Origin: Gammaproteobacteria bacterium
GTDB lineage: Bacteria > Pseudomonadota > Gammaproteobacteria > SZUA-152
Reading direction: 5' to 3'
DNA: 64,000 nt
NCBI GenBank assembly: GCA_032250735.1
Contig: JAVVEP010000011.1
Location: 31,661-95,660, forward strand
The notes beneath the pieces were generated by a model. It made no database searches and was not told where the DNA came from. It saw only the letters and a list, made by a program, of their open reading frames with translations. This document shows positions 1 to 48,547 of this stretch, one piece after another. The position numbers and the translations under genes are program-made. Positions within the stretch are counted from its first letter, which is position 1; each line of letters opens with the position of its first letter.

Positions 1-80
1 TGGGACAAGGGATGTGGGCAAGGACGCTGATTGAAGCAGCGGGGCACGCGAACCGTCTCTTATATAATAAAAAGATATAT

Positions 81-131
81 TTATTGAAAATTATCACTTC
101 CAGTGAAAATGTGGGTTTGCTATATTGATCT
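81..131 (+). promoter_or_regulatory. FNR/ANR-type class II promoter of sRNA copy 1
   Basis: TTGAA-AATT-ATCAC at 84-97 matches the FNR/ANR consensus TTGAT-N4-ATCAA at 8 of 10 fixed positions. An extended -10 (TGC-TATATT, 118-126) follows and there is no -35 hexamer. The box centre lies about 41.5-42.5 nt upstream of the start predicted at 132-133, the class II activator position. The same arrangement recurs exactly 218 bp downstream. Box identity is from known consensus; activation by oxygen limitation is inference. Confidence 0.6.
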
Positions 132-206
132 TACTTTAAACAAACCCCCTATATTGTTTAAACGAAAAAGCCGCCACCTCAGCCCTGCTGATGGCGGTAT
201 TTTTTT
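132..206 (+). ncRNA. Predicted small RNA, tandem copy 1
   Basis: About 75 nt. A perfect 9-bp stem (135-143 with 154-162) displays the loop ACCCCCTATA. A short A-rich linker follows, then an intrinsic terminator: CCGCCA (171-176) pairs with TGGCGG (192-197), with an inner CAGC/GCTG stem, and a T-run at 199-206. There is no start codon with a ribosome site. The loop and promoter match copy 2 although the stem sequence differs, which points to a selected RNA structure. The C-rich loop could pair with G-rich Shine-Dalgarno regions (inference). I do not recognise a named family. Confidence 0.65.
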
Positions 207-298
207 GGTGGGTGTTTTTCTGGGCGGGAGGCGGGAACGAAAAAACCGTCCATGGGCGCTGCATGAAAAGGGTGCATTTATCTGCAATCGGGATGTTT

Positions 299-349
299 TT
301 ATTGGAAATAATCATTTCTCACGAGAAGCACCGCTTGCTACTGTGGAGT
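299..349 (+). promoter_or_regulatory. FNR/ANR-type promoter of sRNA copy 2
   Basis: TTGGA-AATA-ATCAT at 302-315 is a weaker FNR/ANR-like box (7 of 10 consensus positions). It is followed by an extended -10-like TGC-TACTGT at 336-344. The distance from the box to TGCTA equals that in copy 1, and the two regions align without gaps from the box to the predicted start at about 350. Confidence 0.5.
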
Positions 350-418
350 CACTTCCAAACAAACCCCCTATCTGTTTGAATCCAGCCGCGCCATCCCCAT
401 AGCGCGGTTTTTTTTTTG
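350..418 (+). ncRNA. Predicted small RNA, tandem copy 2
   Basis: About 69 nt. CAAACA (356-361) pairs with TGTTTG (373-378) around the loop AACCCCCTATC. A terminator follows: CCGCGC (386-391) with GCGCGG (402-407), then a run of ten T at 408-417. The loop core ACCCCCTAT equals that of copy 1, while stem and terminator have diverged yet keep pairing. The two genes look like sibling sRNAs made by duplication. Confidence 0.65.
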
Positions 419-474: not shown

Positions 475-900
475 CTAGCGCTGGGCGGCGATCAATTCCT
501 CAATGACCTTGGCCAAGGCCTCACGTTGCAGTTTGGGTAATTTCATCCACATTAAACCGAGATCAAAGGCCTCTTTGCTGAGCTTGTCCCTGCCGATGAG
601 GGGGAGATTTTTGCCCTCACCGCGGGGGTTTTCACTCTTGTTATAGGGCTCCCCCTGTCCCGAGAGTAACCAATTGGAGCGTACCTTGGTGAGGTCGGAG
701 AGCTTGACCAGGGCAGATGTCCGCGGAAAGGCATCGCCCTTAAGCCAATGGCCGACATCCTGAACGGGGACATTCAGTAATTCGGCGAGGCGTGACTGGC
801 GCCCGCCCCCCAGTTTGGGGAACTGGATATTGTCCAGGGCATCGTTGAGCCGCTCGGCAAAACGCATTCTTTCACTGGAGGTGGTTTTCTTGTTTGGCAT
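475..900 (-). CDS. XRE-family (phage CI-like) transcriptional regulator
   Basis: A 141-residue protein with a helix-turn-helix at about residues 30-75, including the family's PRTSALVKLSDLTKV and WLLSGQGEP segments. Proteins of this size and layout are lambda-CI/Cro-like DNA-binding regulators. The C-terminal half (LSKEAFDLGLMWMKLPKLQREALAKVIEEL) is helical and may dimerise; there is no peptidase domain for self-cleavage. It stands alone, points toward the tandem sRNA genes and is divergent from yjbQ. No other phage gene is visible. The target is unknown; autoregulation would be typical of the family. Confidence 0.85.
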   Translation of the reverse strand: MPNKKTTSSERMRFAERLNDALDNIQFPKLGGGRQSRLAELLNVPVQDVGHWLKGDAFPRTSALVKLSDLTKVRSNWLLSGQGEPYNKSENPRGEGKNLPLIGRDKLSKEAFDLGLMWMKLPKLQREALAKVIEELIAAQR

Positions 901-48472: not shown

Positions 48473-48547
48473 TGGCGCTCCCTAGGGGACTCGAACCCCT
48501 GTTACCGGCGTGAGAGGCCAGTGTCCTAACCACTAGACGAAGGGAGC
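48473..48547 (-). tRNA. tRNA-Glu (anticodon CTC)
   Basis: 75 nt with encoded CCA. Acceptor GCTCCCT pairs with AGGGAGC, the D arm starts GTCTAGTGG, the anticodon loop CTCTCAC places CTC at 48512-48514, and the T arm contains GGTTCGAGTCC. The layout equals E. coli tRNA-Glu. A CTC anticodon reads GAG; the TTC form must be elsewhere. Confidence 0.95.

What the first reader, a model, noticed from the sequence alone, without database searches (positions are those of the whole stretch)
81..418. Twin small-RNA genes behind duplicated FNR/ANR-type promoters
Two promoter-RNA-terminator units repeat with a 218-bp offset. In both, an FNR-like box is followed by an extended -10 at identical spacing, the box centre lies about 42 nt before the predicted start, and no -35 exists. 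That is the class II activator layout, so both RNAs are predicted to be made when oxygen is low. Anaerobic sRNAs are known (FnrS, AniS, PhrS), but I do not recognise this tandem pair.
Basis: partly seen in the sequence, partly recalled or inferred. Interest (0 to 1): 0.85.

Follow-up and report, generated by a model that had tools for sequence, protein, structure and literature searches.

The report
Twin small RNAs against nanowire cytochrome
A bacterium of an uncultured gammaproteobacterial order carries two predicted small-RNA genes in tandem, with relatives in most genomes of that order, whose shared loop is an exact complement of the predicted ribosome-binding site of a cytochrome gene related to the OmcE protein nanowire, so the RNAs would likely shut that gene's translation off; what switches the RNAs on is unknown and is probably not the oxygen regulator FNR.

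Summary
The two promoter-RNA-terminator units are real. Relatives occur in 21 of 24 genomes of the order at E<=0.01 (19 units built the model); none outside was convincing. Each folds into a hairpin with CCCCCUAU in its loop plus a terminator; no Rfam cutoff is reached. The FNR/ANR reading fails: over 30 promoters aligned without gaps, key FNR bases vary and one of 30 scores 8 of 10. A target was found. ATAGGGGGTT, the loop's complement, occurs three times in the 3.43-Mb genome: twice as the antisense of the RNAs, once at the Shine-Dalgarno of a four-haem cytochrome whose closest solved relative is the OmcE nanowire (7tfs, E 7e-19). In ten genomes it heads a frame of 80 aa or more only at this gene. 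Best reading: tandem anti-Shine-Dalgarno RNAs that likely repress an OmcE-like nanowire cytochrome. Pairing is weaker in three genomes and unsupported in genera g3-g5. No transcript, repression or filament was observed.

The parts
60..126 (+).
133..206 (+). Predicted small RNA 1 (start near 133 inferred from the -10; end at the T run)
135..162 (+). Seed hairpin of RNA 1; the anti-Shine-Dalgarno stretch AAACCCCCTAT is 142-152
171..206 (+). Intrinsic terminator of RNA 1
278..344 (+).
351..417 (+). Predicted small RNA 2 (start near 351 inferred from the -10; end at the T run)
360..378 (+). Seed hairpin of RNA 2 as folded (356-378 in the fold); the anti-Shine-Dalgarno stretch AAACCCCCTAT is 361-371
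384..417 (+). Intrinsic terminator of RNA 2
   Evidence: not listed by the scan
475..900 (-). Convergent neighbour: CI-repressor-like helix-turn-helix protein (PF07022); a neighbour, no role claimed. The predicted target gene lies outside the window at G000:C7:45872-46828
   Evidence: target

Best explanation
These are two tandem, predicted trans-acting small RNAs whose C-rich hairpin loop is exactly complementary (11 bases) to the Shine-Dalgarno region of an OmcE-like four-haem cytochrome gene elsewhere in the genome, and they likely repress its translation by covering that site. Shown: the units, their conservation, folding and covariation, the complementarity, its place in the genome, and the kinship of the target to the OmcE nanowire. 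Inferred: that both RNAs are made; that the loop AUAGGG of a small 5'-UTR hairpin in the target first kisses the loop CCCUAU of the RNA and then opens into the full duplex; that ribosome binding, and so nanowire production, falls; that an unidentified activator bound near -40 (with a possible further site near -64) turns both copies on together.
For: Plain DNA search with the window: E<1e-3 in 13 of 24 genomes, the own one included; covariance model: 21 of 24 at E<=0.01. 97% of cells paired; 34 cells changed on both sides against a shuffled mean of 10.3. ATAGGGGGTT occurs 3 times in G000: two sRNA antisense places and the cytochrome Shine-Dalgarno. In ten genomes it occurs 42 times: 10 sRNA antisense, 8 OmcE-like starts, 24 other places, none heading a frame of 80 aa or more within 30 nt (one sRNA place assigned by coordinates). 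An earlier search, AGGGGGTT then ATG in seven genomes (79 places, 77 start variants translated), gave one gene recurring at long-frame starts: the same cytochrome, in 4 of 7 genomes; nine other frames of 150 aa or more came once each. The 5'UTR GAGACC-AUAGGGGG-UUUC recurs, with small variations, in 16 starts of g1, g2 and g6. Duplex energies lie below shuffles by z -2.1 to -6.7 in the 14 of 22 RNA-target pairs that keep 9-12 contiguous pairs. Target: 7tfs at E 7.2e-19 alone, 6.8e-25 as profile; PMC12954529 gives 7TFS as OmcE (passages). Downstream lie a PPIase, NHL and other beta-propeller proteins, further cytochromes and a cytochrome-assembly protein.
Against: ATAGGGGGTT is not enriched as such: 42 places against 38 for the reversed pattern in ten genomes, 3 against 3 in G000; the case rests on where it lies. 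In g3-g5 (four genomes) the loop differs (AACCCAUGCCCCCA) and pairing with the local OmcE-like start is no better than shuffles (z -0.3 to -0.9); a search for another target there found nothing. In G016, G017 and G020 a U inserted before the G run leaves 5 to 8 contiguous pairs (z -1.0 to -1.9). G002, G014, G019 and G021 keep the RNA but only paralogues of the target were found. G012 has the 5'UTR motif but no RNA was found. By raw duplex energy the target ranks 4th of 78 frames of G000, behind one other gene of the same cytochrome locus and two in the window. Swapping partners between g1 and g2 (five RNAs, five targets each) shows almost no co-adaptation (-0.5 kcal/mol). The 5'UTR hairpin has no compensatory changes. 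The number of pair types in the RNA fold does not exceed shuffles (252 of 500 as high). No RNA data exist.
Confidence: 0.68

Rival explanations
1. The pair are anaerobically induced sRNAs: FNR/ANR binds at about -42 in both promoters as a class II activator.
For: Boxes of 8 and 7 of 10 at the right place in the window units; AT at -40/-39 and A at -37 are shared with ATCAA; a haem-rich respiratory target fits a redox signal; 8-of-10 matches are commoner in the window than shuffles give (41 against 19), so FNR-type sites may exist in this genome.
Against: C of ATCAA kept in 12 of 30, its last A in 0 of 30, second T of TTGAT in 3 of 30; 1 of 30 promoters scores 8 or more; p 0.12 against shuffled consensuses on 24 promoters.
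Confidence: 0.1
2. Broad anti-Shine-Dalgarno RNAs, like the Neisseria NmsR siblings: many G-rich start sites are bound and the cytochrome is only one of them.
For: C-rich loop; three other start regions of G000 give lower summed duplex energies; the RNA persists where the target ortholog was not found.
Against: Only the cytochrome start recurs across genomes with the extended complement; its match of 11 bases exceeds a generic Shine-Dalgarno match.
Confidence: 0.2
3. The conserved cytochrome 5'UTR is a cis element (a hairpin that tunes its own ribosome site) and its match to the RNA loop is coincidence; the RNAs act elsewhere.
For: GAGACC/GGUUUC hairpin conserved even where the RNA was not found (G012) or pairs less well (G016, G017, G020).
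Against: Ten-base match at the only non-self place in a 3.43-Mb genome, at a start site, repeated at the same gene in 6 of 10 genomes including three copies in G015.
Confidence: 0.13
4. The units are antisense or terminator elements for the convergent helix-turn-helix gene rather than free RNAs.
For: The gene lies convergent, 57 bp beyond unit 2, and its end is seen beside the unit in G013, G015 and G016 (by eye).
Against: In G021, G003, G008 and G010 the units sit beside other genes yet keep promoter, hairpin and terminator.
Confidence: 0.03

Closest known systems
NmsRA/NmsRB sibling sRNAs of Neisseria (PMC5362039, passages read)
   Same: Two tandem related sRNAs (70% identical there) with unpaired anti-Shine-Dalgarno stretches that lower translation of central metabolic enzymes.
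   Different: Neisserial RNAs have three stem-loops and UC-rich motifs and act on TCA-cycle genes; here there are two hairpins, an ACCCCCUAU loop and a cytochrome target. Common descent was not tested.
Rfam RF02278 Betaproteobacteria toxic sRNA (double-hairpin RNAs; PMC5688073, passages)
   Same: Same two-hairpin layout and length, C/U-rich unpaired stretch; the best Rfam match to unit 2 (23 bits).
   Different: Cutoff is 50 bits; E 0.0045 (101 bases searched) to 0.021 (480 bases); loop UCCUCCUC there. Longer loci of four relatives and of the own genome gave no such match at E<=0.5, but that search of 15 kb is less sensitive.
RyhB of Shewanella (PMC5826389, outline and abstract read) and PrrF1/PrrF2 of Pseudomonas (PMC4211561, passages)
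   Same: sRNAs that reduce c-type cytochromes or other iron proteins; PrrF1/2 are a tandem pair in P. aeruginosa.
   Different: Fur-controlled there; the Fur consensus fits these promoters no better than shuffled ones.
FnrS, AniS, PhrS
   Same: Small RNAs tied to respiration.
   Different: FNR/ANR activation is not supported here; no sequence comparison was made beyond the Rfam scan.
OmcE nanowire of Geobacter (7TFS; PMC12954529, passages)
   Same: Target shares the sequence over several haem motifs and has four CxxCH.
   Different: Target is 318 aa versus 232 for the 7tfs chain; filament formation unproven; no usable model (pLDDT 35).

Membership tests
FNR/ANR class II activated promoter | TTGAT-N4-ATCAA with conserved key bases | tested here: not met
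   1 of 30 promoters reaches 8 of 10; C of ATCAA in 12 of 30; p 0.12 on 24 promoters
FNR/ANR class II activated promoter | Site centred near -41.5 and extended -10 | tested here: met
   Box centre near -42.5 from an inferred start; -14 G in 23 of 30
FNR/ANR class II activated promoter | Induction without oxygen through FNR | not testable with these tools
   No expression data
Trans-encoded bacterial small RNA | Own promoter, conserved fold, intrinsic terminator | tested here: met
   the scan lists only the first terminator; absence of a conserved reading frame was not tested
Trans-encoded bacterial small RNA | Transcript present and Hfq or ProQ bound | not testable with these tools
   No RNA data; hfq was not searched for
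Anti-Shine-Dalgarno sibling sRNAs (NmsR kind) | Tandem related copies with an unpaired anti-SD stretch matching a conserved target SD | tested here: met
   the match fails in g3-g5 and is weaker in three g1 genomes
Anti-Shine-Dalgarno sibling sRNAs (NmsR kind) | Translational repression through the anti-SD stretch | not testable with these tools
   No experiment
Any Rfam family | Score at or above the gathering cutoff | tested here: not met
   (best 23 bits against 50)
Fur-controlled iron-sparing sRNA (RyhB, PrrF) | Fur box at the promoter | tested here: not met
   Recalled Fur 19-mer matches 0.50 of bases, shuffled mean 0.50
OmcE family (target) | Sequence kinship and four CxxCH motifs | tested here: met
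OmcE family (target) | Extracellular filament | not testable with these tools
   Structure model too poor to search

The most novel reading that the evidence does not exclude
A new, order-wide family of sibling RNAs is a dedicated off-switch for an extracellular cytochrome nanowire: two to three related copies titrate the nanowire mRNA through a loop-loop contact at its start site, giving a fast post-transcriptional brake on long-range electron transfer.
Probability: 0.45. Interest if true: 0.8.

Novelty: new member of a known kind. Interest (0 to 1): 0.62.

Why it matters
The physiological role of cytochrome filaments is disputed (PMC11077965, abstract start in the listing). An RNA that shuts one off gives a native handle: find the signal that induces the RNA and one learns when the cell does not want the wire. 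My searches showed no dedicated sRNA for a nanowire: sRNA with OmcE gave three papers, of which PMC6013743 only predicts interactions between Geobacter soli sRNAs and electron-transfer genes (passages); small RNA, cytochrome nanowire and post-transcriptional gave one, on CsrA (listing only); sRNA with electron-transfer terms gave five, the nearest being RyhB in Shewanella. The library is open-access only, so this is not proof of absence.

Tried and rejected
FNR/ANR box: rejected on conservation. Eighteen other recalled consensuses (CRP, Fur, ArcA, PhoB, IHF, NarL, NsrR, IscR, OxyR, GacA, Lrp, Fis, CpxR, PhoP, RpoN, RpoE, UP, ModE) were slid over 24 aligned promoters: only GacA stood out (p 0.025 uncorrected, not remarkable among 19 tests), kept as a weak lead because the dyad GNAA-N8-TTNC has the spacing of the recalled GacA box; its TT was imposed by my anchor. 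Promoter pattern in the own genome: 34 hits against 17 for the reversed pattern; the genes around the hits were not examined. A first target pattern, AGGGGGTTTGTNNG with up to two mismatches, gave 223 hits against 184 for the reversed pattern and no convincing gene among those looked at. Relatives in plasmids: none. Class-wide: nine genomes outside the order had a weak hit; six were looked at, five share only a terminator and one (G348) has a two-hairpin layout with a CCCCC loop but other sequence; three genomes were not looked at. Structure model of the target: pLDDT 35, not used. Alternative target in g3-g5: none. A second covariance model was aligned for but not built because the g3-g5 stems misaligned.

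Rows dropped and built-in matches: 19 of the 20 strong units were used to build the model and match by construction; independent are the first DNA search, the third G013 unit, the siblings and the g3-g5 forms. The first promoter set (24) came from a pattern that imposed several bases and lost six known units; it was redone with a laxer anchor for 30 promoters, which still imposes TT at -35/-34, A/C/T at -33, C/T at -32, T-12, A/G-11 and T-7. Duplex tests used 20 RNAs against targets of 17 genomes that had both (22 pairs); sibling RNAs and one further G011 target were not tested.

Full report
WHAT IS THERE. The two units are in the sequence as described. They match at 50 of 83 ungapped positions at an offset of 218; shuffles give a mean of 23 and at most 37 of 83. 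Each has an extended -10, a hairpin, and a G+C-rich terminator with a T run; the terminator scan lists only the first. No consensus -35/-10 pair lies in 1-1300. The likely starts, 133 and 351, are inferred from the -10 hexamers, giving RNAs of about 74 and 67 nt.

CONSERVATION. A DNA search with the window found matches at E<1e-3 in 13 of 24 genomes of the family, the own one included. A covariance model from 19 units finds relatives at E<=0.01 in 21 of 24 genomes: 20 units above 57 bits in 17 genomes of genera g1 and g2 (19 of them built the model), diverged upstream siblings in six g1 genomes (five at E<=0.01, G021 at 0.012), and a variant form in four genomes of g3-g5 (E 4e-4 to 1.6e-3). 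Seven of 24 genomes have two or more units at E<=0.01; in all seven, and with the weaker sibling in G021, two units lie 200-450 bp apart; G013 has a third on another contig. Asked for up to 200 genomes of the order, the collection gave these 24 only. In 369 genomes sampled from the class (four of them of this order), nine genomes outside the order score weakly (best E 5.7e-4); of six looked at, five share just a terminator and one (G348) has a similar two-hairpin layout with a C-rich loop but different sequence. A pattern scan of named species genomes gave 13 contigs, all metagenome-assembled and filed as Gammaproteobacteria or Ectothiorhodospiraceae, among them SZUA-152, NORP100 and HyVt bins. 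PMC9174799 places SZUA-152 with Thiohalomonadales from hydrothermal chimneys (passages). The fold is supported by compensatory changes: 34 cells changed on both sides versus 10.3 expected, none of 500 shuffles as high; but 5 of the 7 pairs concerned are in the terminator, and the number of pair types is not above shuffles (252 of 500).

THE PROMOTER IS NOT AN FNR PROMOTER. Thirty promoters, the window's two and 28 from relatives and siblings, align without gaps from -78 to -1. AT at -71/-70, -58/-57, -50/-49 and -40/-39, A at -44, and GA at -28/-27 are nearly invariant and were not imposed by the anchor, though -40/-39, -37 and -28/-27 were used to choose among anchors. Against FNR, the C of ATCAA is C in 12, T in 11 and A in 7; the last A is absent in 30 of 30; the second T of TTGAT is A in 25. 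Unit 1 alone reaches 8 of 10. On 24 of these promoters the FNR consensus fits no better than shuffled versions of itself (p 0.12). Matches of 8 of 10 are common in the window (41 against 19 expected by chance), so real FNR sites may exist elsewhere in it. A partial dyad GNAA-N8-TTNC centred near -39.5 (TT imposed by the anchor) and, by eye, an inverted repeat near -64 (TTATCTT...AAGATAA in siblings) suggest an activator; a GacA-type regulator is a weak lead only.

THE TARGET. The loop sequence AAACCCCCTAT is identical in both window units (142-152 and 361-371). I searched seven genomes for AGGGGGTT followed by ATG (79 places; 42 for the reversed pattern) and clustered the frames that follow: one gene recurred at long-frame starts, in G000, G003, G005 and G013; three other recurring pairs are frames of 30 to 103 aa, and nine further frames of 150 aa or more came once each. 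I then searched ten genomes for ATAGGGGGTT. It occurs 42 times, the reversed pattern 38 times, so it is not enriched as such. Ten places are the antisense strand of the RNAs, eight are starts of that same gene (G000, G003, G005, G007, G013 and three in G015, one cut by a contig end), and 24 are elsewhere, none followed within 30 nt by a frame of 80 aa or more. In G000 the only place that is not the RNAs is this gene. The 5'UTR reads GAGACC-AUAGGGGG-UUUC, with small variations, just before the ATG of 16 genes in g1, g2 and g6 and can fold with AUAGGG in a loop in three of the four stretches folded alone and in the consensus of ten (no compensatory change).

WHAT THE TARGET IS. A protein of 318 aa with a hydrophobic N-terminus and four CxxCH motifs, Pfam Paired_CXXCH_1 and Cytochrome_C7. 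Its best solved relative is 7tfs, E 7.2e-19, or 6.8e-25 with a 16-row profile; second is 9yuq. PMC12954529 gives 7TFS as the OmcE nanowire (passages). Downstream, within 24 kb, lie a PPIC-type isomerase (the next gene), a cytochrome c7, NHL and lactonase-type propellers, two proteins with 11 CxxCH each and a cytochrome-assembly protein (of eight proteins scanned there three matched no family). That OmcE-type loci often carry an isomerase and NHL proteins is recalled, not checked; the OmcE paper was not held.

MECHANISM. Pairing over the Shine-Dalgarno region predicts translational repression. Of 22 RNA-target pairs from 17 genomes, 14 keep 9 to 12 contiguous Watson-Crick pairs with z -2.1 to -6.7 against shuffles; three (G016, G017, G020) keep 5 to 8 with z -1.0 to -1.9; five from g3-g5 show nothing (z -0.3 to -0.9). 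In g2 the predicted duplex extends beyond the 12 bases (-30.8 kcal/mol in G007), but swapping partners between g1 and g2 gives almost no co-adaptation (means -20.4, -24.1, -21.4, -25.6 kcal/mol). By energy alone the target ranks 4th of 78 frames of 150 aa or more in about 102 kb of G000; first is a 610-aa gene of the same cytochrome locus (controls were allowed several starts). The case therefore rests on the conserved extended complement at one start site, not on energy.

LIMITS. No expression data exist. Most genomes are draft assemblies of 73-100% completeness, so absences (RNA in G006, G012, G022; target ortholog in G002, G014, G019, G021, G022) are not firm.

Noticed in passing
L222 (G021), L223 (G019), before the start of a 336-338 aa paralogue: Where the OmcE-like ortholog was not found, a paralogous multihaem cytochrome has AAATAGGG before its (in L222 second) start, 8 bases complementary to the RNA's CCCTATTT.
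   Followed up: partly
L076, L077, L079, L080, L081: Upstream sibling RNAs in g1 have longer stems, different C-rich loops (CCTCCCCCC, CCCTACCCCC) and C-rich terminator loops, as if each sibling had its own target.
   Followed up: no
L069-L072: In g3-g5 the RNA shows AACCCAUGCCCCCA in its loop, which is the complement of a G-rich stretch holding AUG; in G008 and G010 a Sel1-like repeat gene (by eye) follows.
   Followed up: partly
promoters, -73 to -55: Inverted repeat TTATCTT-N5-AAGATAA centred near -64 in sibling promoters, with a weaker form in the window units; possible second regulator site.
   Followed up: no
window 475-900, minus strand: CI-repressor-like helix-turn-helix gene convergent to the RNAs; its end is also seen beside the RNA in G013, G015 and G016.
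   Followed up: no
L269 (G348, outside the order): A weak model hit with a hairpin showing CCCCC in its loop and a terminator with a C-rich loop; possibly an unrelated RNA of the same design.
   Followed up: no
L304 (G013:C217:39938-39973): Short tandem repeat of ATAGGGGGTTGTA, three exact copies of the searched 10-mer, not before a gene.
   Followed up: no
window 48476-48547, minus strand: The only Rfam match of the window at cutoff is a tRNA gene.
   Followed up: no
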